IMG/VR virus record: IMGVR_UViG_3300042691_009313
Coordinates: 1-50,870 of that record
Length of the DNA stretch: 50,870 nucleotides
From: a virus
Direction: 5' to 3' (one strand)
Part shown: positions 7,039-32,555 of the stretch, piece by piece
Layout: the number at the start of each line of letters is the position of its first letter
Position numbering within the stretch: position 1 is the first letter of the stretch
Notes under the pieces: model-generated
The model's database searches: none
What the model saw: only the letters and a program-made list of their open reading frames with translations
Told to the model about the DNA's origin: nothing
Position numbers and translations under genes: made by a program

Positions 7039-7344
7039 ATGATGCCTGCCGTATCAAAAAAGCAGGAAAAATTTATGCAGGCGGTGGCGAACAACCCAGC
7101 GTTTGCAAAGAAGGTGGGGGTTCCCCAGTCTGTGGGCAGTGAATTTACGAAAGGAAAGAAAATGAAATACGCAAAAGGTGGTATGGCTCCTTCCAAAATG
7201 GGCGCAGTTAAAACTGCAGCTCCTAGCAAAGATGGCGTTGCTATCAAGGGTAAAACCAAGGGCAAACAAGTTGTCATGGCTGGCGGTAAGGGCATGAAAG
7301 CTGGCGGCATGACTAAGAAAATGAAGTACGGCGGGAAGTGCTGA
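7039..7344 (+). CDS. Small Lys/Gly-rich protein, DUF3008-like
   Basis: A 101-residue protein with an N-terminal PAVSKKQEKFMQAVANNP block, which resembles the DUF3008 family. The rest is a very basic, low-complexity tail of Lys, Gly, Met and Ala. The tail carries repeated [YM]-x-x-G-G motifs (YAKGGM, MKAGGM) and ends YGGKC. A double ATG (7039/7042) follows the upstream stop at once. It is probably unstructured after residue 35. DNA condensation or encapsidation is a possible role; nothing in the sequence proves it. Confidence 0.72.
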   Translation: MMPAVSKKQEKFMQAVANNPAFAKKVGVPQSVGSEFTKGKKMKYAKGGMAPSKMGAVKTAAPSKDGVAIKGKTKGKQVVMAGGKGMKAGGMTKKMKYGGKC

Positions 7345-7345
7345 A

Positions 7346-7627
7346 ATGATGGCGAGCCGAGGGATGGGAGCAATTAGCCCATCCAAAATGCCAAAAGCGA
7401 AGACGATCAAGCGGAAAGACAAACCGCAAGACGTCACCATGTTTAAAGCTGGTGGAGAATCCAAGGTCAATCAGGCCGGAAACTACACCAAGCCGGGCAT
7501 GCGTAAAAAGCTGTTTGAACAAATCAAGTCCTCCGCTACGCAGGGAACGGCGGCGGGACAGTGGTCGGCTCGTAAGGCGCAGCTTCTGGCTAAGAAGTAC
7601 AAAGCTTCTGGCGGGGGGTATAAGTGA
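7346..7627 (+). CDS. Small basic phage protein
   Basis: A 93-residue, Lys-rich protein with blocks I recognise from many environmental phage genomes: KAKTIKRKDKPQDVTMFKAGG, then NYTKPGMRKKLFEQIK, and the C-terminal GQWSARKAQLLAKKYKASGGGY. It contains one FKAGG motif of the type discussed in the findings. The stop overlaps the next start (GTGA). The function is unknown. Its companions in this row share the same composition, so they may act together in the particle. Confidence 0.75.
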   Translation: MMASRGMGAISPSKMPKAKTIKRKDKPQDVTMFKAGGESKVNQAGNYTKPGMRKKLFEQIKSSATQGTAAGQWSARKAQLLAKKYKASGGGYK

Positions 7628-7875
7628 GTGGACTTGCGAAAAGTCAGCGTAGTCTCAAAGCTTGGTCAGCCCAAAAATGGCGAACCAAAAGCGGAAAGCG
7701 GTCGTCTGACACAGGAGAACGTTACCTTCCTGAAAGCGCAATCAAATCGCTATCCCCCCAAGAATATGCCGCTACTACTCGTGCCAAACGCGCTGGAAAG
7801 GCGTCAGGTAAGCAGTTCGTTGCCCAACCAAAAGCCATCGCTGCTAAAACCGCAAGACACAGGAAGATAGGATGA
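7624..7875 (+). CDS. DUF5872-type small basic protein
   Basis: An 83-residue basic protein that begins with GTG in a 4-bp overlap. The order of motifs (SLKAWSAQKWRTKSGKRS, then ERYLPESAIKSLSPQEYAA, then a Lys/Ala/Arg tail) fits the DUF5872 family, best known from phages and giant viruses and of unknown biochemical role. It overlaps the next start (ATGA). Position and composition group it with the preceding basic proteins. Confidence 0.8.
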   Translation: MSGLAKSQRSLKAWSAQKWRTKSGKRSSDTGERYLPESAIKSLSPQEYAATTRAKRAGKASGKQFVAQPKAIAAKTARHRKIG

Positions 7876-8798
7876 GCACATCCGGCACCTCGGCTTTTAC
7901 CTTAAACCTTAACGAAATCGTCGAGGAGGCGTTTGAACGTGCGGGTGGACAACTTCGTTCTGGCTATGACTTACGCACAGCTCGTAGGAGCCTTAACCTT
8001 TTATTCGCTGATTGGGCCAACCGTGGCATTAACCTATGGACTGTCGAGCAGGGATCGTTCACCCTGACACCGGGGCTGATGACTTACCCGCTCCCTGTGG
8101 ATACGGTGGATCTGTTGGAGCATGTGATTCGGACACAGGCCAATAACTCGGCCACACAAGCCGACCTGACCATTACCCGGATTTCTGTCAGTACCTACGC
8201 CACGATCCCAAACAAACTGACGCAGGCTCGCCCGATTCAGATCTATGTAAATCGGCAGTCTGGCAACGCTGGTCCTACAGGGTTAACCCTAAACGGCGGC
8301 ATTAACGCGGTGGTCACTTCTATTACGTTAAGTTCTACCGTTGGGCTTCCGGCATCAGGCTACGTCAAGATTGGGTCTGAAACTATTTTTTATAGTTATA
8401 TAGTTGGCAACGTCTTGACTAACTGCTTCCGTGGGCAGAACAACACTACGGCGGCGTCTCATTTAACCGGTGTCGCGGTTAGCCTTCAGCAACTGCCCTG
8501 CGTCACCCTTTGGCCTGTACCGGACGATTCCCAGACCTACACGTTGGTGTACTGGCGCATGCGTAGGATTCAGGATGCATCTACGGGTATTACAGACTTT
8601 GACATCCCGTTCCGTTTTATTACCTGCCTGACCGCAGGACTGTCGTACTACCTAGCGCTTAAAATTCCTGAAGGGATGGGGCGGCTGGATATATTAAAAA
8701 GCATGTACGACGAGGCGTGGGATTTGGCTGCGGGTGAAGACCGTGAGAAGGCGGCTGACCGGCTGGTGCCACGACAGATGTTTATTGATGCGGGCTGA
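7872..8798 (+). CDS. Head-completion/tail adaptor-type protein with inserted beta domain
   Basis: A 308-residue protein. Residues 1-130 begin with a helical adaptor-like region (EIVEEAFERAGGQ, RTARRSLNLLFADWANRGINLW), then strands with YPLPVDTVDLLEHV. Residues about 140-205 form a beta-rich insert with an ITLSSTVGLPASGYVKIG strand and a CFRGQNNTTAASHLTG end, a small module often seen in phage structural proteins. The C-terminal part returns to the adaptor type (TLVYWRMRRIQD, then a long helix). Helical adaptor proteins of this kind sit between portal and tail in short-tailed phages (P22 gp4 and SU10-type adaptors). The exact ring is not certain, because a second adaptor candidate lies at 9743. 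Confidence 0.7.
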   Translation: MSTSGTSAFTLNLNEIVEEAFERAGGQLRSGYDLRTARRSLNLLFADWANRGINLWTVEQGSFTLTPGLMTYPLPVDTVDLLEHVIRTQANNSATQADLTITRISVSTYATIPNKLTQARPIQIYVNRQSGNAGPTGLTLNGGINAVVTSITLSSTVGLPASGYVKIGSETIFYSYIVGNVLTNCFRGQNNTTAASHLTGVAVSLQQLPCVTLWPVPDDSQTYTLVYWRMRRIQDASTGITDFDIPFRFITCLTAGLSYYLALKIPEGMGRLDILKSMYDEAWDLAAGEDREKAADRLVPRQMFIDAG

Positions 8799-8803
8799 TA
8801 CTC

Positions 8804-9232
8804 ATGGGCAATAGATTTGCTTCCGGTAAAAAAGCGATTGCTGAATGTGATCGTTGCGCCTTTCGCTATAAGCTGAAGGAGCTTCGGCGGCTCGTCATCA
8901 AAACCAAAAACATCAACATACTGGTTTGTAAGTCGTGTTGGGATCCTGATCACCCACAGTTGCAGCTTGGTATGTATCCCGTGGATGATCCGCAGGCTGT
9001 CCGTAACCCACGCCGGGATTTGAGTTATTTGTTGGGCGGTCTGACAGGGCTGCAGATTGATTTAGGTACAGGGTCCGATGTTGATCAGACTGGAACTAAT
9101 ACTGGTGGTAGCCGTATATTTCAGTGGGGTTGGGCACCGGTTGGTGGAGCGCAAGCTAACGATGCCGGACTAACCCCTAATAACTTGGCGCTTGGCATTA
9201 CGCTTGGCACAGTAACCGTAGCAACTACTTAG
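8804..9232 (+). CDS. Zinc-ribbon virion-associated protein
   Basis: A 142-residue protein with two CxxC knuckles (Cys15/Cys18 in ECDRC, Cys42/Cys45 in VCKSC) in an N-terminal zinc-ribbon-like domain, followed by WDPDHPQLQLGMYPVDDPQ, a block typical of this phage family. Residues 75-142 are Gly/Thr/Asn-rich and probably form a loose tail. The start RFASGKKAIAECDRC is characteristic. It lies between two adaptor-type genes, so it is probably a structural or assembly protein. Metal binding is inferred from the four cysteines. Confidence 0.75.
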   Translation: MGNRFASGKKAIAECDRCAFRYKLKELRRLVIKTKNINILVCKSCWDPDHPQLQLGMYPVDDPQAVRNPRRDLSYLLGGLTGLQIDLGTGSDVDQTGTNTGGSRIFQWGWAPVGGAQANDAGLTPNNLALGITLGTVTVATT

Positions 9233-9241
9233 GAGCACAAA

Positions 9242-9448
9242 ATGAAACATGAGGACATTAAAAAAGATAAACCCATGATGGAAAAAGTTGCCAAGAAGGC
9301 AGTCAAAACCCATGAGAAAAAAATGCATGGCAAAGGCTACCGTGCTGGCGGCAAGACCAACTTAGAAATGAAAAAACTGGGTCGTGGACTGGCAAAAGTT
9401 GCCAACCAAAGAGCACCCATCCGTATGGTTCGGAAGGTAGGTATCTAA
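9242..9448 (+). CDS. Small Lys-rich protein
   Basis: A 68-residue protein with about 18 lysines, preceded by AGGAG. The first half is helical (MMEKVAKKAVKTHEKKMHGK), then YRAGGKTNLEMKKLGRGLAKVANQ. The MKKLGRGLAK-VANQ end is recurrent in small phage proteins of aquatic genomes. It carries one YRAGG motif. The function is unknown. Its composition matches the basic row at 6.5-7.9 kb. Confidence 0.7.
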   Translation: MKHEDIKKDKPMMEKVAKKAVKTHEKKMHGKGYRAGGKTNLEMKKLGRGLAKVANQRAPIRMVRKVGI

Positions 9449-9742
9449 ATGGCTAAGTACAGCGCGAAGATGAAGGGCAAAGAAGTTGGCCCTGCCAGCA
9501 CATACGCAGTCCCGCACAACATGTCAGGTAAAACCCTAAGTGAAGCCGACATGAAGCGGGCTGTGTCGATGGATTCGTACAGCAACTCCAAGATCCGCAA
9601 CGCTTCAGATGTAAATAGCAAGTCGCCTTCCCTGACGGTTAGCATCGGCGCTAACACCAAGGAAAACATGAACGGCGAAATCACGATGCGTGGTTATGGT
9701 GCTGCAACTAAAGGCATCAAGTGCCGAGGACCGATGGCGTAA
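9449..9742 (+). CDS. Small conserved phage protein
   Basis: A 97-residue polar protein that starts directly after the previous stop. The middle is Ser/Asn/Asp-rich. The end, ITMRGYGAATKGIKCRGPMA, is a signature I associate with small proteins just upstream of the adaptor gene in environmental podoviruses. It has no membrane segment or known catalytic motif. Function is unknown; a structural accessory is likely from position. Confidence 0.7.
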   Translation: MAKYSAKMKGKEVGPASTYAVPHNMSGKTLSEADMKRAVSMDSYSNSKIRNASDVNSKSPSLTVSIGANTKENMNGEITMRGYGAATKGIKCRGPMA

Positions 9743-10465
9743 ATGAACTACTCAACGCTCTTTGAAACAATTAAGGGGTATGTCGAAAACGACTTCCCCG
9801 GTACAACTTGGACCGATAGCGCTGGTACCGGGACGGTAACGTTTACCCAAAAAGAGCAGATTGATACGTTCATCCAGCAGGCTGAACAACGTATTTACAA
9901 CATTGTTCAGTTCCCGTCGATCCGTAAGAATGTGACAGGCTTTACAACGCAGAACAATAAGTACTTGTCATGCCCTACAGATTTCTTAGCCGTTTATTCT
10001 ATGGCGGTTGTTGATCCGGGCACGGGCGCATACAGCTACTTACTGAATAAAGACGTTAACTTCATTCGTGAAGCTTTTCCCATCCCAACGGAAACAGGCA
10101 AGCCGTACTGCTACGCTTTGTTTGGCCCCGCTACTACAAACACTAACCCGCCAGTTATTACTAACGAACTAACGTTTTTAATCGGCCCCACACCCGACGC
10201 TTCTTATACGGTAGAGCTTCACTATTACTACTACCCAGAGTCAATCGTTACGGCGGGCACATCTTGGCTGGGTGATAACTTTGATTCCGTGCTTCTTTAC
10301 GGTTCGTTGCTTGAGGCTTATACCTTTATGAAAGGTGAGCAGGACGTAATTAACCAATACCAGAAACGCTATGACGAAGCGTTAGCTCTAGCTAAGCGTC
10401 TGGGCGATGGTATGGAGCGGGGCGATGCTTACAGGGACGGCCAGTTCCGTCAAAGGGTGACCTGA
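9743..10465 (+). CDS. Tail adaptor protein (SU10-type)
   Basis: A 240-residue protein with an N-terminal helical part (YSTLFETIKGYVEND; FIQQAEQRIYNIVQFP, about 34-55), a central strand region (YLSCPTDFLAVYSMAVVDP; ELTFLIGPTP; YTVELHYYYYPESI) and C-terminal helices (SLLEAYTFMKGEQDVINQY, about 190-225). This arrangement and the terminal ALAKRLGDGMERGDAYRDG fit the adaptor proteins of SU10-like short-tailed phages, which form the ring under the portal. It starts at ATG 9743 immediately after the preceding stop. Adaptor identity is from family knowledge; ring formation is inferred. Confidence 0.75.
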   Translation: MNYSTLFETIKGYVENDFPGTTWTDSAGTGTVTFTQKEQIDTFIQQAEQRIYNIVQFPSIRKNVTGFTTQNNKYLSCPTDFLAVYSMAVVDPGTGAYSYLLNKDVNFIREAFPIPTETGKPYCYALFGPATTNTNPPVITNELTFLIGPTPDASYTVELHYYYYPESIVTAGTSWLGDNFDSVLLYGSLLEAYTFMKGEQDVINQYQKRYDEALALAKRLGDGMERGDAYRDGQFRQRVT

Positions 10466-10466
10466 T

Positions 10467-10880
10467 ATGCCGTTTACTGGTAACGCCACCTGCGACGTTT
10501 TTAAATACGGGCTAATCAACGGGCAGTTTAAGTTTGATGGTTCGCAGGCATACAAGATTGCGCTGTACAACAACTCGGCGTCATTGACTGCTGAGACAGC
10601 CGCTTACACATCTAGCGGTGAGATTTCTGGCACAGGATACGTAGCTGGCGGGGAAGCACTTACCCCCACCGAAGGTATTGCTGATGGGGTGGCGTATGTC
10701 ACCTTTGCAAATGTAACTTGGTCGGGGGCGTTTACAGTCCGTGGCGCCCTCATTTATCAAGTGAGTGGTGGGGCAGCGGTTTGTGTCCTTGATTTCGGGA
10801 GCGACAAAGTATCCCAAAACACTTTTACCGTGCAGTTCCCGGTTGCCGGGGCGACGACGGGATTAATTAGACTTTCATAA
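10467..10880 (+). CDS. Beta-rich tail or fibre-base protein
   Basis: A 137-residue, strand-rich protein with KIALYNNSASLTAETAAYTS and EISGTGYVAGGEAL blocks. These are common in a family of small phage structural proteins next to the tail fibre genes. The sequence has few charges and no hydrophobic segment long enough to span a membrane. It lies one base after the adaptor stop, so it is probably co-translated. The role is probably structural (tail tip or fibre attachment) but is not established. Confidence 0.68.
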   Translation: MPFTGNATCDVFKYGLINGQFKFDGSQAYKIALYNNSASLTAETAAYTSSGEISGTGYVAGGEALTPTEGIADGVAYVTFANVTWSGAFTVRGALIYQVSGGAAVCVLDFGSDKVSQNTFTVQFPVAGATTGLIRLS

Positions 10881-10890
10881 GGAGTTTGTG

Positions 10891-11463
10891 ATGTTTAACG
10901 AAAAGGCAAAATCTACCGACCTGACCGTCGCTTCCGTGTCGGCTGGTGTTGGTTCGCAGGAATTGGTTCGCGGCGGCGGTGTATTTCATTTCAAGTGCTA
11001 TGACAAAGATGGCAACCTGAAGTGGGAAGATACGGCACATAATCTTGTGGTTAACCAAGGTCTGCAGGATATGAATACCCAGTACTTCAAGGGTTCTAAC
11101 TACTCTGCTGCTTGGTATCTGGGTCTGGTCAATAACAGCCCGTCGCCTTCTTATAACGCTAACGATACGCTGGCATCTCATGGTGGCTGGAACGAAACTT
11201 CTTCGTATTCCGGTAACCGTAAAGCTGTAACGTTTGGCACGGCTTCTACCGCTGATCCGTCAATTATTGATAATGCAGCTTCACCGGCATCGTTTTCAAT
11301 TACTGGCACGGTGACTGTGGCTGGTGCGTTTCTGGCTTCTGTAGCTACAGGTACTTCGGGAATTCTGTTCTCGGTGTCAACCTTCCAAGCTCCCGGCGCT
11401 CGTTCAGTTGTGTCTGGTGACACGCTGTCTGTGACTTATCAATTCAGCCTTGACGCTATTTAA
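10891..11463 (+). CDS. Beta-rich tail or fibre-base protein
   Basis: A 190-residue protein. I start it at ATG 10891, seven bases after AAGGAG; a GTG three bases earlier is also possible. The N-terminal half has a conserved-looking block GGGVFHFKCYDKDGNLKWED followed by HNLVVNQGLQDMNTQYF, seen in many phage structural proteins that describe themselves only as tail-associated. The C-terminal half is a Ser/Thr/Ala strand-rich region. It is probably a virion protein; partner unknown. Confidence 0.7.
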   Translation: MFNEKAKSTDLTVASVSAGVGSQELVRGGGVFHFKCYDKDGNLKWEDTAHNLVVNQGLQDMNTQYFKGSNYSAAWYLGLVNNSPSPSYNANDTLASHGGWNETSSYSGNRKAVTFGTASTADPSIIDNAASPASFSITGTVTVAGAFLASVATGTSGILFSVSTFQAPGARSVVSGDTLSVTYQFSLDAI

Positions 11464-11473
11464 GGAGTAAAAC

Positions 11474-11653
11474 ATGGCGACTAAATTTGTAAAAGGCCAA
11501 GACGTAAAAGTAATTGGTGTCATCCCCCAAGGTCCGGTTAAGGCACTACGGATGGATGAAGACGGCAACTTTTATTATCTGATCGAGTGGACTGATGCCA
11601 AAGGTAATAACCATGAGCGTTGGTTTGACGAGGCGGATCTAGCAGCGGCCTAA
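11474..11653 (+). CDS. Small SH3-like protein
   Basis: A 59-residue protein with AAGGAG at a good distance from ATG 11474. The pattern is FVKGQDVKVIGVIPQGPVKALRM, then YYLIEWTD, then NNHERWFDEADL. This is the short beta-barrel style of small SH3-like or YodC-like proteins, in which a Trp-Phe-x-E-x-x-L ends the domain. The next gene starts two bases after its stop. Function is unknown; it may be a small binding module in the fibre region. Confidence 0.65.
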   Translation: MATKFVKGQDVKVIGVIPQGPVKALRMDEDGNFYYLIEWTDAKGNNHERWFDEADLAAA

Positions 11654-11654
11654 C

Positions 11655-12887
11655 ATGTTCGGGGCAGCACCTTTTGCGGCGACACCGTTTGCGGGTCTTT
11701 CTGGTGGCTTCTTTGCAGCGGCCATTAATGAGACAGCAAATGCAAGCGATGTCGTTTCCGCACAAGGTGTTTTTCTTCGATCAATACTAGAGTCTGCGAC
11801 AGCTTCTGAAACAGTTGCTGCTGCATTTTCTCCCGCTAGTTCACTTGCTGAGTCTGCTGTAGTTTCTGAAACCACAAGTTCAATTCTTACCGCAGTAGGT
11901 CTTATTAATGAAACAGCTACAGGGGCAGATGCAGTAAGTAGTAACTTTGCAGTCAATAGCCTGATTTCTGAGTTTGGCTACCCCGTTGAAACCGTTTCTG
12001 CTGGGTTAACTGCTGTTGGTGCCGTAAATGAATCTGTCACTGGCTCTGAGACTGTGGCAAGTGCGTTTGTTGCTACTAGCTCTATTGCTGAATTGGCTAA
12101 CGCATCTGAAACTACAGCCTCTGAAAAAGTCATTAGTGTTGTAACAGACGAAGCCTCTAGCGTTTCTGAGACAGTTAGCGCAACCGCAGTCTTTACTCCG
12201 GCTGTTGCAGAATCCGCTGTCGCCGCAGATACGGTTTCATCTAATGGCGCATTTAGCGACTTTATTAATGAGTCCGCAGTTGGCGCAGATACGGTAGCGT
12301 CTAACTTTACGGTAAATGCTGCAGTGCAAGAAACAAGCACTGGGGTGGATCAGGTAAGTTCCAATACGGCCACAAACTCTGCAATTACTGAGTCCGCTAC
12401 GGCTGCTGATCAAGTTTCGGCAGCGGCTAGTTTTGTAGCTACAACGACGGAGTCGGCTACCGGGTCGGATACGGTTGATGGGGCTAGAAGTATGAACGCC
12501 TCCATAACCGAAGATCTGCATGGATTTGATTTTGTTTATGCCACACCAACTGTAATTGTCCAGCTAAATGAGTTTGCTGAAGGGTCCGAAACAACTTCTG
12601 CGGCGGCTAACTTTGGAGGCACGGTAAACGAAAGCGCTGTTGGAGCAGACGCCATAAGCACAACCGCCACTATTACTGGATCTGTCCAAGAGTCTGCCCA
12701 AGCTGCTGACGCCGCGATTGTTTACGCCGTATTTATGGCGATGCTGCAGGAAAGTATTCGCGCTTCAGACCTCATTACAGCCCGGTATCTGTGGGAAATT
12801 ATTAATGACTACCAAGCAACAAGTTGGAGTAACATTAACACTTACGAGCTTGGTGACTGGGCAGTTATCCCAACTCAGGAGAACTAA
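11655..12887 (+). CDS. Repeat protein, 18 x 20 residues, probable fibre
   Basis: A 410-residue protein with a hydrophobic N-terminus (residues 1-24, GAAPFAATPFAGLSGGFFAA), then 18 uninterrupted 20-residue repeats (25-384), then a 26-residue cap ending in SWSNINTYELGDWAVIP. The repeat consensus is (N/A/Q/T)-E-(S/T)-A-x-(G/A)-(S/A)-(D/E)-x-(V/T)-S-x-x-x-x-(F/V)-x-x-x-(I/V). The body is almost entirely Ala, Ser, Thr, Val, Glu, Asp and Asn, with no Cys and few aromatics. A regular, gap-free 20-residue period suggests an elongated fibre or solenoid. It starts the fibre region. The cap ends with a TAATG overlap into the next fibre-type gene. Confidence 0.78.
   Translation: MFGAAPFAATPFAGLSGGFFAAAINETANASDVVSAQGVFLRSILESATASETVAAAFSPASSLAESAVVSETTSSILTAVGLINETATGADAVSSNFAVNSLISEFGYPVETVSAGLTAVGAVNESVTGSETVASAFVATSSIAELANASETTASEKVISVVTDEASSVSETVSATAVFTPAVAESAVAADTVSSNGAFSDFINESAVGADTVASNFTVNAAVQETSTGVDQVSSNTATNSAITESATAADQVSAAASFVATTTESATGSDTVDGARSMNASITEDLHGFDFVYATPTVIVQLNEFAEGSETTSAAANFGGTVNESAVGADAISTTATITGSVQESAQAADAAIVYAVFMAMLQESIRASDLITARYLWEIINDYQATSWSNINTYELGDWAVIPTQEN
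11727..12806 (+). repeat. 18 tandem 60-bp coding repeats
   Basis: Eighteen 60-bp units, each coding 20 residues, without a single insertion or deletion. The DNA units have diverged strongly while the protein pattern is kept, so the array is old and under selection at protein level rather than a recent slippage product. Units 9-13 and 16 are closest to consensus (for example AESAVAADTVSSNGAFSDFI). Units 14 and 17-18 are the most degenerate. Confidence 0.9.
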
Positions 12888-13372
12888 TGGCCTTAGTATT
12901 AGCTGATCGTGTCAAAGAATCGTGTACCGCTCCGGGTACAGGCACCGTCACGCTCCTTGGGGCGGCTACGGGCTATGTGTCATTTGCCGTAATTGGTAAC
13001 GGAAATACTACTTATTACTGTATTGCTGATCAGGGCGGTAATAACTGGGAAGTCGGTATTGGCACCTACACCTCCAGCGGAACTACGCTTTCCCGTGACA
13101 CGGTGTTGTCAAACTCGGCAGGTACAACGGCCTTAATTAACTTCTCATCGGGTACACAGGATGTATTTGTAACGTATCCGTCTGAGCGTTCGGTGTATAC
13201 CGATGGGGCGGTGCTTAAGAGCGATACGGCTGGGGTGATTGCCAATAAGACTCTGATCACGACGCCCGGCTACATTAACGCAAATGAGAATGGTTTTAGC
13301 GTTGGCCCGGTGACAATTGGTACTGGCGGTTCAGTTACGGTAGCTGCCGGTCAGCGTTGGCTTGTGGTGTAA
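12887..13372 (+). CDS. Fibre-type beta domain protein
   Basis: A 161-residue protein of a well-known phage fibre-domain type: LADRVKESCTAPGTGTVTLL at the start, then SFAVIGNGNTTYYCIAD and a strand-rich middle with TLSRDTVLSNSAGTTALINF. The C-terminus (GPVTIGTGGSVTVAAGQRW) is a typical fibre strand end. It starts in a TAATG overlap. It lies among receptor-binding proteins, so it is probably a fibre subunit or its base. The gene is a single-domain unit that in other phages is part of a longer fibre. Confidence 0.72.
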   Translation: MALVLADRVKESCTAPGTGTVTLLGAATGYVSFAVIGNGNTTYYCIADQGGNNWEVGIGTYTSSGTTLSRDTVLSNSAGTTALINFSSGTQDVFVTYPSERSVYTDGAVLKSDTAGVIANKTLITTPGYINANENGFSVGPVTIGTGGSVTVAAGQRWLVV

Positions 13373-13381
13373 GGAGAAGAG

Positions 13382-13711: not shown

Positions 13712-13721
13712 GGAGAATTAA

Positions 13722-14123: not shown

Positions 14124-14135
14124 AAGGGGTAAAAC

Positions 14136-15380: not shown

Positions 15381-15382
15381 TT

Positions 15383-15775: not shown

Positions 15776-15787
15776 TGAGGCGTCACC

Positions 15788-16102: not shown

Positions 16103-16112
16103 GGGGAAAGTA

Positions 16113-21533: not shown

Positions 21534-21803
21534 ATGTCTAAAGATTTTCCTGATTTAACAGGCGATGGCAAGGTAACCCGTGCCGATGTACTGAAAGGGC
21601 GTGGTGTTGAAGGGTTTAAAAAGGGTGGTTCAGCTAAATGGATTCAGTCCGCGATCAAAAAACCCGGCTCTTTACGAAAATCGCTTGGTGTAAAAAGCGG
21701 AGAGAAAATCCCCGCAAAAAAGTTGTCAGCCGCAGCCAAAAAGCCGGGCAAGCTGGGGCAGCGGGCAAGGTTAGCTCAGACGCTCAAAAAACTCGGCAAG
21801 TAG
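21534..21803 (+). CDS. EF-hand-like small basic protein
   Basis: An 89-residue protein. The first 20 residues hold a calcium-loop-like motif, DLTGDGKVTRADVLKGRG (D-x-T-G-D-G-x-V-x-x-x-D). The rest is very basic: FKKGGSAKWIQSAIKKPGSL, then KIPAKKLSAAAKKPGKL and LAQTLKKLGK. The second half is common in aquatic phages. It carries one FKKGG motif. The A6 run at 21786-21791 near its end could allow a -1 frameshift into a hydrophobic tail. The function is unknown. It lies between the last fibre and the lysis genes. Confidence 0.75.
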   Translation: MSKDFPDLTGDGKVTRADVLKGRGVEGFKKGGSAKWIQSAIKKPGSLRKSLGVKSGEKIPAKKLSAAAKKPGKLGQRARLAQTLKKLGK

Positions 21804-22336: not shown

Positions 22337-22680
22337 TGGAAAAAAGTGCAAAAGAATTAGCCAGTAAAGTCATCGGGGTCATAGGAATCCCAGCCATCGT
22401 CCTGATGGTAGGTATGGTGATTTACTCGGCCATGCAGTTATCTTCTGAGGCGCTGACTCCAATTGTGGGTATGGCATCTGGTGTCATCATGGCCCTGATT
22501 TCCATGATTGGCGGGATCACCGGGACACGGGATAAGGAAGAAAAGCCAGAGTTCCAAGTCATTCAAAACCTTATTGCCCGACTTGACCAGAAAGAAGCCC
22601 CGATGCGGGTGGATGTTGAGGATGGCAAAGTCACCGTTTGCAAGGGTGATGACACGGTCAATATGGAGAAATGCAAATGA
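22336..22680 (+). CDS. Two-helix membrane protein, probable holin component
   Basis: A 114-residue protein with two hydrophobic helices (about 12-33, VIGVIGIPAIVLMVGMVIYS; about 39-62, LTPIVGMASGVIMALISMIG) followed by a charged C-terminal tail ending in MEKCK. I start it at ATG 22336 in a TGATG overlap. Two helices, short size and position directly before a second membrane protein and the lysozyme suggest a holin or holin partner. The stop overlaps the next gene. No named family is certain. Confidence 0.65.
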   Translation: MEKSAKELASKVIGVIGIPAIVLMVGMVIYSAMQLSSEALTPIVGMASGVIMALISMIGGITGTRDKEEKPEFQVIQNLIARLDQKEAPMRVDVEDGKVTVCKGDDTVNMEKCK

Positions 22681-23159
22681 TTACTCTTCTCTCTACCCTT
22701 ATATCCTTCCTGATGGGCGGTCTGCCCAAGATTCTGGATTTTTTTCAGGACAAATCCGATAAGGCCCACGAGCTTCAGTTAGCCCAAATGCAGACCGAGC
22801 GGGAGCTAAAGATGCTTGCTGCCGGGTACGCTGCGCAGGCTAGGGTGGAAGAGATCCGGACTGATCAGGTGGCGATGCAGACTGCCGTCCAAGAACGCCA
22901 AGCCCTGTACGCCCACGACATCGAGATTGGCAAAGGTGCATCCCAGTGGGTCATTAACGCTAGAGCGATGGTGCGGCCCACCATTACCTACGGGATGTTT
23001 GTTCTGTTTGCCTTCGTGGAGTTCTTTGGGTTCTTCTTTGCTTACCATCGTGAGGTGCCGTTTGATCAGGCGCTGGAGATTCTTTGGGACAACGAGACCC
23101 AGATTATTTGGTCGTCTGTGGTGGCATTCTGGTTCGGAACGCAAGCGTTTAAAAAATGA
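22677..23159 (+). CDS. Holin of the GTA 3TM type
   Basis: A 160-residue protein started at ATG 22677 (overlap ATGA; GGAG eight bases upstream; ATG 22671 would be too close to that site). It has an N-terminal hydrophobic segment (LLSTLISFLMGGLPKILDFF), a charged central helix (about 25-95), and two C-terminal hydrophobic segments with VRPTITYGMFVLFAFVEFFG and IIWSSVVAFWFGTQAF. The WVINARAMVRPTITY block resembles the GTA_holin_3TM family. It probably makes the membrane lesion for lysis. The stop overlaps the lysozyme start. Confidence 0.76.
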   Translation: MITLLSTLISFLMGGLPKILDFFQDKSDKAHELQLAQMQTERELKMLAAGYAAQARVEEIRTDQVAMQTAVQERQALYAHDIEIGKGASQWVINARAMVRPTITYGMFVLFAFVEFFGFFFAYHREVPFDQALEILWDNETQIIWSSVVAFWFGTQAFKK

Positions 23160-23662: not shown

Positions 23663-23664
23663 CC

Positions 23665-25575: not shown

Positions 25576-26921
25576 TGTCTTTAATACTAAATTTTAAGTA
25601 CGCCCCGCTACCTAACCCTCCCGTAGAGTACGACCAGCAGTATGTACGGCAGCTTATCCGGGTACTGGAGCTTTACTTTAATCAACTGGACGGCTGGAAT
25701 CTGCAGGTCTACAACTATTTAAGGGACTTCGATATGGGTCAGTTTCCACCAAATGCGTTAGATGCTTTTGGACGGTTAAAAGTTTCTAACCCTTTCACGC
25801 TTTTTGACAGCCAGAACCGGTATCAAAAAGACCCGCAGTTCAGTGAAGCATTATCCGGTGCAGGTACGGCTACTTACGTGGCTGACGAAAGCAGCGTAGA
25901 TTTAAATGTCACCACGGCTTCAGGCGATAAAGTAGTTCGGCAAACTTATCGGGTCTTTCCATATCAGCCCGGTAAGGGTCTTGAGTTGATGGCTACGTTT
26001 GTAATGAACGCGGGTAAGGCGAATCTGCGGCAGCGTGTAGGCTATTTCAATACTGGCAACGGTTTGTTTTTTCAGTTAGATGGGACAAGTAAGGCTTTTG
26101 TGTTGCGCACCAGTACTTCTGGCGCACCCAGCGATGCTCGGACTGTTACGCAGGCTAATTGGAATGGCGATAAATTAGATGGAACCGGAGCTTCTGGTTT
26201 AACTTTAGATATTACTAAGGCTCAAATTCTGTACGCAGATTTTGAATGGCTTGGGGTTGGCTCGGTTCGATGCGGGTTTGTGATTAACGGCGAAATTATT
26301 ATCTGCCATACGTTTAATAACGCCAACGATTTAGACAAGGTTTATATGACCACGGCCATCCTGCCAGTGCGTTATGAGATTGAGAACCTTGATAACACCG
26401 GTAGTAGTTCAACGCTTACTCAGATCTGCTCCACCGTTATTTCTGAAGGCGGGTATCAACAAAAAACAGCGCTTACTTGGGCTAGACGAACCACCGTTCT
26501 GACAGGCGTTACTACTACTTTTGTGCCATTGGTATCTATTCGACTTAAAAGCACCAATCTAGGAGCTGTAGTTTTACCGTCTATATTCCACGCCATCCCA
26601 ATTGGTTCAACCTTAGACTATGAACTAGCTTTGGTGAAAAACGCCACGTTAACTGGGGCAGCATGGGTTAGTAGCTCAAATAATGTTGAGCAAGACACAA
26701 CGGCAACGGCTATGACCGGCGGCACTATTGTTGACCTAAATTACACGGCTGGCAGTAACCAAGGTAGTGGCACAGCCACAGGGGATGTGGAATACAACTT
26801 TGATAACCAGCTTGGGGTATCCCTTGCTGGAACCAGCGACATTTTTACTTTAGCCGCTAGAACTATTTCTGGCACGGACGACATTATTGGCGCCATGTCC
26901 TACTACGACCTAACCGACTAA
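25575..26921 (+). CDS. Tail or fibre-attachment protein
   Basis: A 448-residue protein starting in a TAATG overlap. Residues 1-60 are helical with YDQQYVRQLIRVLELYFNQL. A strand-rich region follows, with FGRLKVSNPFTLFDSQNRY (about 66-85) and a jelly-roll-like section, ADFEWLGVGSVRCGFVIN, then MTTAILPVRYEIENL (about 215-280). The C-terminus has SGTDDIIGAMSYYDL. The WLGVGSVRCGFVINGE pattern is frequent in large phage structural proteins annotated as tail-associated. It may carry an enzyme or binding domain, but I see no catalytic motif. Confidence 0.7.
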   Translation: MSLILNFKYAPLPNPPVEYDQQYVRQLIRVLELYFNQLDGWNLQVYNYLRDFDMGQFPPNALDAFGRLKVSNPFTLFDSQNRYQKDPQFSEALSGAGTATYVADESSVDLNVTTASGDKVVRQTYRVFPYQPGKGLELMATFVMNAGKANLRQRVGYFNTGNGLFFQLDGTSKAFVLRTSTSGAPSDARTVTQANWNGDKLDGTGASGLTLDITKAQILYADFEWLGVGSVRCGFVINGEIIICHTFNNANDLDKVYMTTAILPVRYEIENLDNTGSSSTLTQICSTVISEGGYQQKTALTWARRTTVLTGVTTTFVPLVSIRLKSTNLGAVVLPSIFHAIPIGSTLDYELALVKNATLTGAAWVSSSNNVEQDTTATAMTGGTIVDLNYTAGSNQGSGTATGDVEYNFDNQLGVSLAGTSDIFTLAARTISGTDDIIGAMSYYDLTD

Positions 26922-26922
26922 A

Positions 26923-27072
26923 ATGATTAAAAGTACTGTCCCTAATTATGGTATGCTTTTTGTTGCACTGCCACATAAATGCATAAAGGTTACAGACAAA
27001 GCACTTACGTCTACAATCACACAAACTAGGCTAAATATGCCTGTTACAGATGGAAGTGTGACCCCTTTTTAA
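26923..27072 (+). CDS. Small ORF, possible gene
   Basis: A 49-residue open frame (IKSTVPNYGMLFVALPHKCI, TRLNMPVTDGSVTPF) that begins one base after the previous stop and ends 12 bases before the next gene. It has no clear ribosome binding site and no recognised domain. Filling the only gap between two virion genes makes it plausible; the weak start makes it doubtful. Confidence 0.35.
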   Translation: MIKSTVPNYGMLFVALPHKCIKVTDKALTSTITQTRLNMPVTDGSVTPF

Positions 27073-27084
27073 CAGGCACGACTT

Positions 27085-29820
27085 ATGTCCACATTCAATA
27101 GCGCACAGATTGCAAGCATTATAAATAGCACGTTGGAGCAGGGCGGTACCAATGCGGATATCGCCATGATAATGGACCAGTTTAAAGTTAGTCCCGCAGA
27201 GGTAGCGGCTGCTATAAATGCTCCTGTAGCTGCAGTCCAAACCGCTTATAACACAGCCATAGCCGAGTTAGGTGCAAGAGGCATTAGCGTTCCGGGTACT
27301 TTTGTAGCAGCGCCAGCACCAGCAGCAACTCCTGCACCAGCCCCAGTAGCTACACCAGCCCCAGTAGCTACACCAGCCCCAGTAGCTACACCAGCACCGG
27401 CTGCACCTCTATCTGATTTTGAACGCACCTTACAGCAGGCTGTTGCAACTAGAAACGCTGGCATAACGACACTTCCGGCGGCTACCCCAGCAGCAACCCC
27501 TGCACCGGCAGCAACTTCTGCTGCGCCTATGTCAGATTTTGAACGCACGTTACAGCAAGCTGTGGCAGTTAGAAACACGGGCGCAACAACCGCACCAACA
27601 ACTGCACCGGCAGCTACACCGGCAGCTACACCAACAACTATAAACCCAAATAATTTTAGCAGTGAACAAATCTTAACGTTCATAAAAGATTTACAAAAAC
27701 AGGGTAAAGATAACGCGTACATTGTTTATGAGATGGACCGTTTTAGAATAAGTCCAACCCTAGTTTCAGAAGCTACAAAAGTACCACTTGCAGACATACA
27801 AGCTGAGTACAACAGAATCAACCCACAAGGTGTTTTTTCCACAGCTAAAGCACCTACAACAACTACACCAACTACAACCGCACCAACTACAACTGTCCCG
27901 GCTACTACAGCAACTACCGCTCCAGCAACTACGGCAGCTACGCCTACTAAATTTACTCCAGAACAAATTGTTGATGTAACCAAAAAAATGCAAGAACTCG
28001 GCAAAACAAATGCTGAGATTGCTGCACAGATGGATACGCTTGGCGTTGATGTAAATCAAATGGCAACAGCTTTGGGCGTTTCTCCCACCGCTGTGCAGGA
28101 TGCATATAACATCGCAAACCCAAAAGGTAAATACTCAACAGTAGTTAGTAAAGAAGGAATTGCCGGATTTGCAAAACCTGTGTATGAAGAGACTAAGTTT
28201 ACGGGTAAGACGGGCATTGGAACTATTACTCCCGCACCTACATATACAACTCTTCCGTTGTTATCTACGCAAGCTAAAGGCGCACCGTCAATTATTGGTT
28301 TAAACGCCCCTGATGTTTATGCCGGTGTGCCTGCTGCGGCTGCACGTCCATCGGCTAACTACCCTATTTTGGCTGGTACAGATACTGGTCAGATTGCAAA
28401 CTACATAAATTACCTTCAAAGCATTGGCAGCACTAGTGCGGACATCAACACCGCTTTGACATCTCAAGGCGTAACGCCCACACAATTAGCCGCCGGACAG
28501 GCAGCGGCAGTCACACCGGCCACAACTGCAACGCCCATGAAAGAAGGTGGGTTGGCTGGGTTGGCTGAAAAAGTTCAGTCCGCAGGTCGTAACGGCGACA
28601 CCATGTTGGCGCACATCACGCCACAAGAAGCAGGAATTCTTCAATTACTGGGTGGTTCAGGAACAATCAACCCACAGACAGGACTGCCTGAGTTTTTTAG
28701 CCTGAGAGATATTGGAAGAGGTCTTGAAAGAGGCGTCAGGCAGATTGGTCGTAGTATTGACCGCCGGATTACGCAACCAATTATTGGCGAGCTTAACAAT
28801 TTAGCCGAACGCCTTGGCCCCATAGGCCAGCTTGCTGCTATGTATTTTGGCGGACCGATTGGCGCTGGTGTGTACGCAGGTTTTGCTGCACCGGGAGATG
28901 ACTTTAACGTTAAAAAAGCTGCACAAACCGCAGCGCTTACTTATGCTGGTGGGCAATTAAATCAAGCCCTCACTACTCCCGGCGGGGGAGCTACTCCAAT
29001 GTCTGCTGCTGACTATGGCGCTGCCGTTGATTCTATTGACGCTGCTGCCGGAGCTACGCTTACACCACCCCCACCCGGCCCTCAAGCGATGATACCTGTA
29101 TCAAATACGATGAGTGCTGCGGAAATGGATCCTAGTATTCTTAGAAATTTACCGCCCGACGCAGTTGCGCCAAGTGCAACGCCTACACCTACTGGACAAC
29201 CGGCACCTTCTACAAACGTAACGCCTTCTAAACTACCCCCGCCACCTTCAGAAAGTTTAGCCAATCTTGCGGGTAGTACTTACGATATTGCTAAAGAAGG
29301 TCTTAAAGCGGTTGGTATTGATACCCTACCTAAAGCTGCCGTGGCAGCAACAATGGGTACATCACTTTTTGAAGGCCAACGTGAAAGAGAAAAGTTTAAA
29401 GAAGAGCAAGCACGTATTGAGCGTGAGTTGGAAGAACGTCGTCGCCGTTACCGTGAACAAGCTGAAGGTCTTTTGGGTCAATACCCCATCCGTTTTGCAG
29501 CCCAAGGCGGTATGATGGACGAGCCTGATTCTGGTCAGGAATTTGATTTTGCAACAGGCGGTATGCCGCCTCGGTTTTTGTCTGGCGGTGGTGATGGTAT
29601 GAGTGATTCCATTCCGGCAATGATTGGGGATCAACAACCCGCACGGCTTGCGGATGGTGAATTTGTTATTCCAGCAGATGTGGTTTCTGGCTTGGGTAAC
29701 GGTTCGTCAAAAGCAGGCGCTAAACAACTGTACGCGATGATGGACAGAATTCGTAAAGCCCGTACGGGTACAACCAAACAAGGCAGGGAAATCAACCCCC
29801 GCCGCTTTATGCCAGCATAA
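27085..29820 (+). CDS. Large modular virion/ejection protein with helical repeats
   Basis: A 911-residue protein. It has four copies of a helix-turn-helix-like unit of about 50 residues (residues about 7-58, 190-253, 288-352, 433-475; for example EQIVDVTKKMQELGKTNAEI), separated by Pro/Ala/Thr linkers, and two copies of SDFERTLQQAV (about 110 and 150). The middle (about 485-640) is helical and ends in a Gly/Ala segment with GPIGQLAAMYFGGPIGAGVY. The C-terminus holds several [FM]-x-x-G-G motifs and RLADGEFVIPADVVSGLGNG. This end is common in phage virion proteins. It is the first of four genes that look like an ejection module. Confidence 0.72.
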   Translation: MSTFNSAQIASIINSTLEQGGTNADIAMIMDQFKVSPAEVAAAINAPVAAVQTAYNTAIAELGARGISVPGTFVAAPAPAATPAPAPVATPAPVATPAPVATPAPAAPLSDFERTLQQAVATRNAGITTLPAATPAATPAPAATSAAPMSDFERTLQQAVAVRNTGATTAPTTAPAATPAATPTTINPNNFSSEQILTFIKDLQKQGKDNAYIVYEMDRFRISPTLVSEATKVPLADIQAEYNRINPQGVFSTAKAPTTTTPTTTAPTTTVPATTATTAPATTAATPTKFTPEQIVDVTKKMQELGKTNAEIAAQMDTLGVDVNQMATALGVSPTAVQDAYNIANPKGKYSTVVSKEGIAGFAKPVYEETKFTGKTGIGTITPAPTYTTLPLLSTQAKGAPSIIGLNAPDVYAGVPAAAARPSANYPILAGTDTGQIANYINYLQSIGSTSADINTALTSQGVTPTQLAAGQAAAVTPATTATPMKEGGLAGLAEKVQSAGRNGDTMLAHITPQEAGILQLLGGSGTINPQTGLPEFFSLRDIGRGLERGVRQIGRSIDRRITQPIIGELNNLAERLGPIGQLAAMYFGGPIGAGVYAGFAAPGDDFNVKKAAQTAALTYAGGQLNQALTTPGGGATPMSAADYGAAVDSIDAAAGATLTPPPPGPQAMIPVSNTMSAAEMDPSILRNLPPDAVAPSATPTPTGQPAPSTNVTPSKLPPPPSESLANLAGSTYDIAKEGLKAVGIDTLPKAAVAATMGTSLFEGQREREKFKEEQARIERELEERRRRYREQAEGLLGQYPIRFAAQGGMMDEPDSGQEFDFATGGMPPRFLSGGGDGMSDSIPAMIGDQQPARLADGEFVIPADVVSGLGNGSSKAGAKQLYAMMDRIRKARTGTTKQGREINPRRFMPA
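27341..27394 (+). repeat. Three perfect 18-bp tandem repeats
   Basis: Three identical copies of an 18-base unit (CCCCAGTAGCTACACCAG) inside the Pro/Ala/Thr linker of the 911-residue protein. Each encodes a PVATPA-type hexapeptide. Exact identity indicates recent slippage or expansion, so linker length may vary between relatives. Confidence 0.9.
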
Positions 29821-29829
29821 GGACTGATT

Positions 29830-30843
29830 ATGGCAACTACGACCTCAACCATAACTGGTGAAATACCAGAGGTACTACAGCCGTACTACACAGGTACGGC
29901 GACCCAACCGGGACTTATACCGAAAGCGTTTGAATTCTATAGCCGCCCATATCAGGCGGTTTATGGTACTGCGCTTGAGCAGGCAGGGTTGGCGGGTTCT
30001 GGTCGCGTTGCTGGGTTAGCTCCGTTTCAAACTCAAGTAGGTACAGAGCTTGCAGGGATGGGTACTCCGTCCCAGTTTGGAACAGCCGCTGGATACGGCC
30101 AAGGTGCAGGTAACGTATTTGGGACATTAAGCGGGGTACAGGCTCCCACGGTTGGTATTGGGTCAATTACAGGGCAGGGGATGCTTGGTGCGTACATGTC
30201 ACCGTACATGTCGCAAGTTGTTGAACAGCAAAAAGCCGCCGCCCAACGTGACGCACAGCGTGCGCAGCTTGCTCAAAATTTAGCCGCCCCCAAATCTGGT
30301 ACTTATGGTGGCGCACGGCAGTTACTGGCAGGGCTTGAGCGTGAGCGGGGATTAGCCAGCCAGCTAGGTAGCATCGAAGCCCAAGGTCGGCAGCAGGCTT
30401 ATCAGCAAGCATTGGGTCAATTTAATATTGAGAATCAGTTAGGACTGACCGCACAGCAGGCTAACCAACAAGCAGCATTGCAGGCCGCTCAACAGCGTCT
30501 AGCCGCAGGTCAAGGACTGGCTGGGTTGGCAGGTACTATGGGGCAGTTGGGCGTGGCACAACAAGCCACGGACCTTGACCGTCTTAAAACTATGGGCGCA
30601 TACGGTGACCTGCAGCGTGGCGTTCAGCAGCAGCGTCTGGATCTACAGTATCAAGATCTTATGCGTCAGCTTGGGTATCCTGAGCAACAGATTTCTGGCA
30701 TTTCTAATGTGCTTCGTGGGGTGCCTATGTCAGATCAAACGCAGCAAGTTACGACACCTCCGCCAAGTTTTGCCAGCCAGCTTGCAGGTCTGGGTTTATC
30801 TGGTCTTGGTCTGTACAACATGTTTAATCAACCTGCGAGGTAA
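29830..30843 (+). CDS. Ejection/internal virion-type protein
   Basis: A 337-residue, Gln/Ala/Gly-rich helical protein. After EVLQPYYTGTATQPGLIPKA comes a Gly-rich region with FYSRPYQAVYGTAL, then long helices (about 125-250, EQQKAAAQRDAQRAQLAQNL). The C-terminal block is MRQLGYPEQQISGISNVLRG, which is recurrent in the ejection region of environmental phages. No membrane segment is clear. Very few acidic residues and high Gln/Ala content match internal proteins that leave with the DNA. Role is inferred from position between the 911- and 568-residue proteins. Confidence 0.7.
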   Translation: MATTTSTITGEIPEVLQPYYTGTATQPGLIPKAFEFYSRPYQAVYGTALEQAGLAGSGRVAGLAPFQTQVGTELAGMGTPSQFGTAAGYGQGAGNVFGTLSGVQAPTVGIGSITGQGMLGAYMSPYMSQVVEQQKAAAQRDAQRAQLAQNLAAPKSGTYGGARQLLAGLERERGLASQLGSIEAQGRQQAYQQALGQFNIENQLGLTAQQANQQAALQAAQQRLAAGQGLAGLAGTMGQLGVAQQATDLDRLKTMGAYGDLQRGVQQQRLDLQYQDLMRQLGYPEQQISGISNVLRGVPMSDQTQQVTTPPPSFASQLAGLGLSGLGLYNMFNQPAR

Positions 30844-30848
30844 GTAAC

Positions 30849-32555
30849 ATGGCTTATGGAATTCCACGTTCTAACTCCAGTTTGATTGCGCAAGAGCAAC
30901 GTATTCTTAGCATTCCGTCTGATCCTAAAGAACAAATGCTGGCGCAGTACATCACCAAACTAGCCCAACAAAACAAAGTTGGTACGCCTGAGTACTTTAT
31001 AGCGGCTGGTGAATTTCAAAACCGTCAAAAAATTAGACAAGAACAAGCCGCTAAACAAGGACAACCACCACCAGTAGCACAACAAATTAACCAACAAGCT
31101 GCTGAAATTGCCCAAGAGCAAGGCGTTGCTCAACTGCCGGTTGGTGGGATAGGCGAGATTGGAAATTACACTGGTGCCATCGGCGGTATTGTGGCGTTTG
31201 AAGATGGTGGGGAAGTTCAGCGTTTTCAAGGGCAAGGCCCGTCATTTGTGCAATCTGCATCTAGCCCGTTTAGACGTGACATTCAAGCATTTAGTGAAGC
31301 AGGGCGGCGTTCAATGTTAGAAAGAACTCCGGGTATGGTAGGCGCATACGACAGACCGTTAATTAGTGCTGAAGAAGATGAACGGATGCGTTTGATACAG
31401 TTACTAAATCAAAAGTTTGGAGCGCAGGGTTCTTTAATCCAAGGTTATTTTATGGATCAATCCCCAGAACAACGCGTGCAAGCTAAAAACATTGTAAGTA
31501 GGCTTCCTAGTATGTCACTTGCTGAACTTCGTAGTTTAGCGAATACAACAGGCACAACAACGCCAACGGCAGCACCTGCAGCAGCGCAAACAACAGGCCA
31601 ACGTTTTGTGGGATCTGATGTTCAAGGTAGTGGTGCGGATGTTCGTAAATCAGATATTGCCGCAGGTGGGCAGAATAGCCCTGCCATGCCTTCGCAGGTT
31701 GCACCTTATATTCCAAAAAGTATGGAGCTGAGTAATTTAACGCCTGCCCCCGTGCCTATTGAAACAGTATTACAACGCGCTAATCAAATTGTTAAAAATT
31801 CAATGGGTGCTGCACCTAGCGAACTTACAACTAAAGAAGGTATTGCCAACGTGCAAGGAGCGTTGAAAGAAGCTGGTTTTGATCCTGCATTTCATCAAAA
31901 ACAAATTGCAGATTTGCGTAAAGAAAAAGAAGGCATCAAAGGTGAACGGCAGGAAGCTATTAACTTACGTCTCATTGAGGCTGGCTTGGGCATACTAGGC
32001 GGTGAGTCGCCGTACGCGTTTGTTAATGTGGGTAAAGGTGCATCTCCTGCGCTTAAAGGATTGCAGGAAGACTTTAAAGATATTAAGAAAATTGACCGGG
32101 AGCGTGATAAAGCGATCCGTGATCTTCAGACTGCTGAACAAGATCTTAAAAAATCTACCGGGTTGGCAGGGTTGGCTGAAGTGCAAAAGAGCCGTGAACG
32201 TGTTGACAGGTACAATGAACTTCGTACCAATAAAGAGCTTAGCGTCTTTAACACAATTTACAATGGCATGGTGCAAGAGCGTATTGCTGCAATGCCAACT
32301 CAAGATGTTCGTTCAGCTATGGCGTTTAAAGATCGCCCTGATCTTTTGGAAATTTATAAAAGCATGCAGGCTTCTCGGTACGGCGGGGCTAACAAAGTTA
32401 GCGCGGCAATTTTACAAGACTACGCTAAGAATCCTCGTAAACTAGAAATGTTGAAAGACATAGATCCTGATATGTATAACTACATAAAAGCAGAATTAGC
32501 AGCACTGGCTGTACCATCTGTTTCAGGACGTCCAACCGGAACCGTACGCGAATAA
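30849..32555 (+). CDS. Ejection/internal virion-type protein with coiled coil
   Basis: A 568-residue protein. The N-terminus is helical and polar (residues 1-100, PKEQMLAQYITKLAQQ), followed by IGEIGNYTGAIGGIVAFEDG, which contains a FEDGG motif. A Pro/Ala/Thr linker lies near 233-245. The C-terminal half is coiled coil, with the conserved-looking block AGLGILGGESPYAFVNVGKG (about 378-397) and LKGLQEDFKDIKKIDRERDK. This block recurs in other aquatic-phage ejection proteins. It precedes the giant protein by three bases and probably enters the host with it. Confidence 0.7.
   Translation: MAYGIPRSNSSLIAQEQRILSIPSDPKEQMLAQYITKLAQQNKVGTPEYFIAAGEFQNRQKIRQEQAAKQGQPPPVAQQINQQAAEIAQEQGVAQLPVGGIGEIGNYTGAIGGIVAFEDGGEVQRFQGQGPSFVQSASSPFRRDIQAFSEAGRRSMLERTPGMVGAYDRPLISAEEDERMRLIQLLNQKFGAQGSLIQGYFMDQSPEQRVQAKNIVSRLPSMSLAELRSLANTTGTTTPTAAPAAAQTTGQRFVGSDVQGSGADVRKSDIAAGGQNSPAMPSQVAPYIPKSMELSNLTPAPVPIETVLQRANQIVKNSMGAAPSELTTKEGIANVQGALKEAGFDPAFHQKQIADLRKEKEGIKGERQEAINLRLIEAGLGILGGESPYAFVNVGKGASPALKGLQEDFKDIKKIDRERDKAIRDLQTAEQDLKKSTGLAGLAEVQKSRERVDRYNELRTNKELSVFNTIYNGMVQERIAAMPTQDVRSAMAFKDRPDLLEIYKSMQASRYGGANKVSAAILQDYAKNPRKLEMLKDIDPDMYNYIKAELAALAVPSVSGRPTGTVRE

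What the first reader, a model, noticed from the sequence alone, without database searches (positions are those of the whole stretch)
7039..31209. A short motif [FYM]-x-x-G-G shared by unrelated virion-region proteins
Nine instances with the same spacing occur in six different proteins: YAKGGM and MKAGGM (7039 protein), FKAGGE (7346), YRAGGK (9242), FKKGGS (21534), MKEGGL, FATGGM and FLSGGG (27085), FEDGGE (30849). The proteins share no fold or homology I can see. They are small basic proteins, or ejection proteins near a flexible end. Possible roles are a virion-packaging signal, a processing site for a protease acting at Gly-Gly, or a binding site for a shared partner. I know of no described function. 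Chance matches in Gly-rich tails are the main alternative; the two glycine-rich adhesins were excluded.
Basis: partly seen in the sequence, partly recalled or inferred. Interest (0 to 1): 0.65.

Follow-up and report, generated by a model that had tools for sequence, protein, structure and literature searches.

The report
Conserved joint motif in swappable phage proteins
A five-residue motif, F, Y or M followed two residues later by two glycines, marks the joints where interchangeable pieces of small, positively charged proteins meet in a group of lake-water phages, and it often sits just before a C-terminal tag carried by many otherwise unrelated proteins, which looks like an address label but has not been tested.

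Summary
All nine instances exist. The list is selective (19 matches outside the adhesins; 9.65 expected), but the motif is real. In relatives fetched by capsid similarity alone, F/Y/M at -3 from GG occurs in 45 of 147 non-redundant sites in small basic proteins (13 expected), with no comparable excess at other spacings and none in acidic proteins. Seven of the nine sites are kept in most homologues; 27085 MKEGG and FLSGG are not. The motif is a joint: the same N-modules are attached to different C-modules with [FYM]xxGG between (347 of 419 pairs), in an unfolded linker. The commonest partner is a C-terminal tag, RADG[IC]AxRGKT[RK]Gxx[VC]-COOH, on 135 distinct proteins in 41 body groups, up to 5 copies per locus. 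It is confined to this phage group in the sampled viral contigs (78 of 78), kept at protein level with saturated synonymous sites, and is gained or lost as a whole gene beside the capsid. The window has only a degenerate copy. Best reading: a virion-targeting label with a docking motif, as in T4 internal proteins. Targeting itself is inferred, not shown.

The parts
7168..7182 (+). YAKGG, residues 44-48 of the 7039 protein: joint between SKKQ N-module and the degenerate tag
   Evidence: exact motif in 43 of 67 aligned homologues
7228..7272 (+). KDGVAIKGKTKGKQV: degenerate internal copy of the DGxAxxGKTxG tag
   Evidence: matches the tag pattern found in relatives
7294..7308 (+). MKAGG, residues 86-90 of the 7039 protein
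   Evidence: exact motif in 53 of 60 aligned homologues
7321..7335 (+). MKYGG, residues 95-99 of the 7039 protein, near its C-terminus (not in the finding's list)
   Evidence: exact motif in 18 of 20 aligned homologues
7346..7441 (+). SRGMG N-module of the 7346 protein
   Evidence: in relatives joined to the WSARK module (153 proteins) or the WIQ module (5)
7442..7456 (+). FKAGG joint, residues 33-37 of the 7346 protein
   Evidence: 69 of 70 homologues; model pLDDT under 50 at residues 27-30 and 32-39
7457..7627 (+). WSARK C-module of the 7346 protein
   Evidence: phrog_17747, E 4.2e-27, residues 34-93
9242..9448 (+). KHEK N-module, YRAGG joint at 9338-9352, GRxLA C-module
   Evidence: GG kept in 51 of 51 homologues, [FYM] in 35 of 51, mostly L otherwise; KHEK module also joined to the tag in 11 proteins
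21534..21803 (+). EF-hand-like N-module, FKKGG joint at 21615-21629, WIQ C-module
   Evidence: 44 of 61 homologues; model pLDDT under 50 at residues 26-33; N-module joined to the tag in L343 and L385
29548..29562 (+). FATGG, residues 822-826 of the 27085 protein, just before its conserved C-terminal region
   Evidence: exact motif in 59 of 73, GG in 71 of 73 homologues
31197..31211 (+). FEDGG, residues 117-121 of the 30849 protein, in GGIVAFxxGG context
   Evidence: 25 of 38 exact, 37 of 38 within 15 columns; the GGI[IV]AFxxGG context occurs in 37 proteins
28537..28551 (+). MKEGG, residues 485-489 of the 27085 protein: not conserved, probably incidental
   Evidence: 2 of 20 homologues; 4 of 13 relatives with the adjacent GDTMLAH-type region have the motif there
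29575..29589 (+). FLSGG, residues 831-835 of the 27085 protein: not conserved
   Evidence: 19 of 77 homologues; others read LLKGP and the like
6512..6796 (+). DUF6321 protein, untagged here, carrying the C-terminal tag in relatives
   Evidence: Pfam PF19846 E 9.6e-20; tagged in 15 of 124 DUF6321 proteins
7038..7039 (+). Gene junction where L002 (97% identical capsid protein) has a whole extra 126-aa tagged gene
   Evidence: flanking genes match by blastn; the tagged gene L002 13292-13672 lies exactly between them

Best explanation
[FYM]xxGG is a short, protein-level conserved joint in a modular set of small basic late proteins of one group of freshwater phages. It separates interchangeable N- and C-terminal modules, and its most mobile partner is a C-terminal tag (RADG[IC]AxRGKT[RK]Gxx[VC]-COOH) placed on many unrelated, fast-changing bodies encoded beside the capsid gene. 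Shown: spacing-specific enrichment, site conservation, module swapping, disorder at the joint in two models, saturated synonymous change in the tag, and whole-gene gain or loss. Inferred: the hydrophobic residue and GG form a docking element, and joint plus tag act as an address label that brings small proteins into the virion, as the capsid targeting sequence does for the variable internal proteins of T4.
For: Spacing-specific enrichment confined to small basic proteins in loci fetched without reference to the motif: 45 of 147 clusters against 13.2 expected; raw 41% of GGs against 9%. Site conservation with free intervening residues (YKEGG, YAEGG, YAKGG, YKKGG; 69 of 70), flanked by indels in the alignment. 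Module swaps: 347 of 419 N-C pairs joined by [FYM]xxGG, or 316 of 388 without the class whose definition contains the motif. Motif lies in the lowest-confidence segment between modules in both models. Constant tag: 135 distinct proteins in 41 body groups; up to 5 tag-bearing genes per locus; in an independent pattern scan 93 of 123 tags have the motif within 16 residues upstream and 91 of 123 end exactly 3 residues later. Tag pairs in one locus have pS 0.70 and pN 0.16, between loci pS 0.71 and pN 0.22: old and held at protein level. Tagged genes lie between capsid and adapter genes; one is inserted or lost cleanly. The T4 review passages describe the same design, a highly diverse set of internal proteins with only a conserved targeting sequence; P1 DarB has an N-terminal packaging signal.
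Against: No virion proteomics and no known partner: targeting is analogy. T4 and P1 signals are N-terminal; this tag is C-terminal. The window has no canonical tag, and about a quarter of tags lack the motif (30 of 123). Some 21534 relatives lose the GG. The pN value is biased low because the search pattern fixes most tag positions. Bodies look low-complexity and match no PHROG family (9 of 9 tagged proteins scanned), so nothing shows that they are cargo. A tblastn search of one tag peptide found nothing in 50,697 phage records at E up to 1. In MinM2 the small basic proteins called show no motif (0 in 23 proteins).
Confidence: 0.42

Rival explanations
1. Passive hinge: the motif is just a short flexible spacer that keeps modules apart, GG giving flexibility and the hydrophobic residue ending the preceding module.
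For: It lies in unfolded linkers between modules, is flanked by indels, and some relatives replace it or drop the GG. Many proteins are chains of modules with several copies.
Against: A pure spacer does not require F/Y/M exactly three residues before GG while the two residues between vary (69 of 70 in the 7346 family); no other offset is enriched to this degree.
Confidence: 0.3
2. Nucleic-acid binding tails: the lysine- and arginine-rich joints and the RGKTRG tag bind phage DNA, and the proteins condense it or ride into the head with it.
For: The proteins are small and basic; the tag is rich in R, K and G. The WIQ module has a sub-threshold match to the fusellovirus VP2 family (17.8 bits, cut-off 27).
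Against: Tagged bodies are only slightly basic (median net charge +0.05 per residue). The tag keeps D, A, T and I/C positions that charge alone does not explain. Acidic residues are tolerated inside the joint (E in 68 of 574 at the residue before GG).
Confidence: 0.15
3. Protease site: a phage or host protease cuts after Gly-Gly, releasing modules or removing N-terminal heads such as MKKRKVKRYNEGG.
For: GG is the most invariant part; a family of unrelated proteins begins MK[KR]xxKR[FY]xxGG; the WIQ module also exists alone or starting at the motif.
Against: Pfam models for C39, C39_2 and S78 proteases match 0 of 12 records (the records may be incomplete and other protease families were not tried). 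The residue after GG is variable. The hydrophobic residue is one place further upstream than in double-glycine leaders as I recall them.
Confidence: 0.08
4. Recombination seam: the motif and tag are conserved DNA that drives gene shuffling, not a protein function.
For: Motif positions are module boundaries and tagged genes come and go.
Against: The motif's GG is coded by many codon pairs (574 pairs). Tags of one genome are saturated at synonymous sites, as different as those of different genomes.
Confidence: 0.04

Closest known systems
Capsid targeting sequence of T4 internal proteins
   Same: One constant short signal on a diverse, changing set of proteins packaged in the head (T4 part from passages of PMC3012670).
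   Different: T4's signal is N-terminal and its proteins are shown to be in the head; here the main tag is C-terminal, no virion data exist, and the S78 prohead-protease model found nothing in 12 records.
DarB packaging signal of phage P1
   Same: A short terminal peptide suffices to bring a foreign protein into the head (section 3.3 of PMC9024508).
   Different: N-terminal; the authors found no consensus among Dar proteins, whereas this tag is a clear consensus.
Double-glycine leader peptides of bacteriocins (recalled)
   Same: Short head ending in GG in some N-terminal cases.
   Different: Different hydrophobic spacing as recalled; the motif is mostly internal; no C39 protease found.
HMO-2011-type and related marine phages
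   Same: Share the WSARK module and the motif in small basic proteins (7 against 1.1 expected, 0 of 300 shuffles, in pieces of four records).
   Different: The tag was not found in the phage collection by tblastn with one tag peptide.

Membership tests
T4-type capsid targeting sequence | one constant short peptide on many unrelated small proteins | tested here: met
   135 distinct tagged proteins in 41 body groups
T4-type capsid targeting sequence | signal at the N-terminus | tested here: not met
   tag is C-terminal, 91 of 123 ending exactly 3 residues before the stop; an N-terminal [FY]xxGG head exists in a subset
T4-type capsid targeting sequence | proteins are inside the virion | not testable with these tools
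   no virion proteomics of a tagged phage was found in the paper searches run
T4-type capsid targeting sequence | signal removed by a prohead protease (recalled feature) | tested here: inconclusive
   PF04586 matches 0 of 12 records; the T4 gp21 family itself was not searched
Double-glycine leader peptides | cognate C39 protease present | tested here: not met
   PF03412 and PF13529 match 0 of 12 records
Double-glycine leader peptides | GG at the end of an N-terminal leader | tested here: not met
   most instances are internal joints
Fusellovirus VP2 (WIQ module) | match above Pfam gathering score | tested here: not met
   17.8 bits at best against a cut-off of 27

The most novel reading that the evidence does not exclude
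These phages use a label-and-cargo system: a C-terminal peptide with an [FYM]xxGG docking joint, carried by a changing set of small proteins encoded next to the capsid gene, loads them into the virion for delivery to the host. It would be a C-terminal counterpart of the T4 targeting sequence, spread over a large uncultivated phage group.
Probability: 0.3. Interest if true: 0.78.

Novelty: new variant of a known kind. Interest (0 to 1): 0.6.

Why it matters
If the tag is a loading signal, one short pattern reveals candidate injected proteins across many environmental phage contigs where homology says nothing, and gives a testable handle on which small late proteins enter the cell with the DNA. 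Even without that, it shows how small phage proteins evolve by exchange of modules around a fixed joint.

Tried and rejected
Chance in Gly-rich tails: rejected for small basic proteins, accepted for 27085 MYFGG, MKEGG and FLSGG and probably for most matches in proteins outside the six (8 against 8.29 expected).

Homology by families: 7039 N-part is phrog_16759, 7346 C-part phrog_17747, 6512 DUF6321; 9242 and 30849 had no PHROG match. Nine tagged proteins had no PHROG match and eight of them nothing above a Pfam cut-off (the ninth was not given to Pfam). Solved structures: no sequence match for two module alignments; Foldseek gave no significant match, best E 2.3 and 3.7. Direct megablast of window 1-25000 against phages: no match. 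The 30849 protein fetched only two relatives; more came through the 27085 C-terminus.

Control phages: T4 (50 kb), lambda, T7 and N4 (50 kb) small basic proteins give 4 motifs against 1.4 expected (13 of 300 shuffles), two of them in homing endonucleases; the crude gene caller may contribute. S-RIM12 piece 0 against 0.3, MinM2 0 against 0.6. The same caller recovers only 11 small basic proteins in the window, so counts miss some true small genes.

Papers: searches for the tag letters and DUF6321 gave none; motif and label searches gave nothing relevant; the library is open-access PMC only.

Full report
OBSERVATION. The list is selective: ten other matches outside the adhesins were not listed. 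Against composition-preserving shuffles the window has 19 matches to 9.65 expected without the adhesins; the six named proteins have 11 to 1.43, the other 46 have 8 to 8.29. Because the six were picked for the motif, the window cannot settle the matter.

INDEPENDENT TEST. The window is an IMG/VR virus record of a tailed phage with portal, capsid and endolysin genes. Three hundred and twenty-seven loci gave 4676 distinct called proteins. In 932 small basic proteins 41% of glycine pairs have F, Y or M three residues upstream against 9% expected; no other offset behaves so. Collapsing similar sites and using only loci fetched by capsid similarity leaves 45 of 147 against 13.2 (+9.1 sd); small acidic or neutral proteins give 62 of 550 against about 56; large proteins a weak excess at -3 matched at -1. 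A stricter collapse gives 25 of 121 (+4.5 sd).

WHICH SITES ARE REAL. Exact motif among aligned homologues: 7346 69/70, 7039 43/67, 53/60 and 18/20, 9242 35/51 with GG in 51/51, 21534 44/61, 27085-822 59/73, 30849 25/38. Not kept: 27085-485 (2/20), 27085-586 (0/45), 27085-831 (19/77). In the large 27085- and 30849-type proteins the context is different, GGI[IV]AFxxGG, in 37 proteins; this may be a second, separate use of similar letters.

WHAT IT IS. In homologues the motif is where modules are exchanged. SRGMG heads are joined to the WSARK module (153 proteins) or the WIQ module (5); the EF-hand-like head to WIQ (49) or to the tag (2); the KHEK head to GRxLA (86) or the tag (11); 347 of 419 such pairs have [FYM]xxGG between, 65 another xxGG and 7 no GG. 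Excluding the class defined with the motif leaves 316 of 388. In both structure models the motif falls in the least ordered segment, residues 26-33 of 21534 (motif 28-32) and 27-30 and 32-39 of 7346 (motif 33-37). Model confidence is moderate (mean pLDDT 69.2 and 67.9).

THE TAG. The C-module found on most different bodies is a C-terminal tag, consensus [FYM]KxGG-x-SAS[KS]RADG[IC]AxRGKT[RK]G[RK][MI][VC]-COOH. A broad pattern matches 192 of 4676 proteins, 135 of them with the tag ending within five residues of the stop. Those 135 (134 with a body long enough to compare) fall in 41 body groups, the largest of 60. Of 114 loci with a tag-bearing gene, 66 have two or more, up to five. DUF6321 proteins occur with the tag (15) or without it (109), the window's without. 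A DNA pattern for the tag was then scanned without reference to homology. In bacterial and archaeal genomes it hit 8 stretches; four of these hold this phage's genes, three are unrelated frames, and one (L335) is a clear tag at a contig edge.

SELECTION. Over 148 tag cores, pairs within one locus differ at 0.70 of synonymous and 0.16 of non-synonymous sites, pairs between loci at 0.71 and 0.22. The search pattern fixes many residues, so the second figure is biased low; the synonymous saturation is not. Tags within one genome are thus old and independently maintained, not recent copies. The motif's GG uses many codon pairs. Both speak against a DNA seam.

PLACE. Tagged genes lie in the late operon between the capsid gene and the 7872 gene, around the 7039 homologue. 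L002, with a 97% identical capsid protein, has one tagged 126-residue gene exactly between the neighbours that touch each other in the window at 7038/7039. The window's only trace of the tag is the degenerate stretch in the 7039 protein.

MECHANISM. [quoted passage not shown] I therefore take targeting to the virion, with [FYM]xxGG as docking element, as most likely (0.42). Steps shown: conservation, spacing, modularity, tag constancy, genomic place. Steps inferred: presence in virions, partner, function of bodies. A passive hinge (0.3) is the main rival.

LIMITS. Gene calling was crude, samples were capped, and the phage collection held no close tag, although MinM2 has a divergent one. No experiment bears on function. 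Papers were seen as search listings, passages and one section.

Noticed in passing
1944-2348: GroES-like co-chaperonin (Pfam Cpn10, 22.4 bits, cut-off 21.1) between portal and scaffold-position genes; MinM2 has an annotated co-chaperonin GroES in the same place.
   Followed up: partly
   Followed up: partly
21534-21614: N-module DLTGDGKVTRAD resembles a single EF-hand or dockerin-type calcium loop (resemblance recalled, not tested).
   Followed up: no
6512-6796: DUF6321 protein matches the C-terminal end of several much larger PHROG families, so it is itself a portable C-terminal module.
   Followed up: no
L335, minus strand, + strand bases 175-206: A clear tag with YAKGG at the edge of a Patulibacter MAG contig, in frame with an unrelated membrane-protein-like reading frame and without this phage's genes; assembly chimera or transfer.
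   Followed up: no
32559-40670: Open frame of 2703 aa directly after the 30849 gene; not studied.
   Followed up: no
L285 996-1631 and L121 376-1047: Two tagged proteins with different bodies share a segment of the type FKEAFAEARxxGKxxFxxNGKxYxT, another candidate module.
   Followed up: no
22671-23159: FLMGG here is a conserved part of a hydrophobic N-terminus in relatives, a different context from the basic joints.
   Followed up: partly
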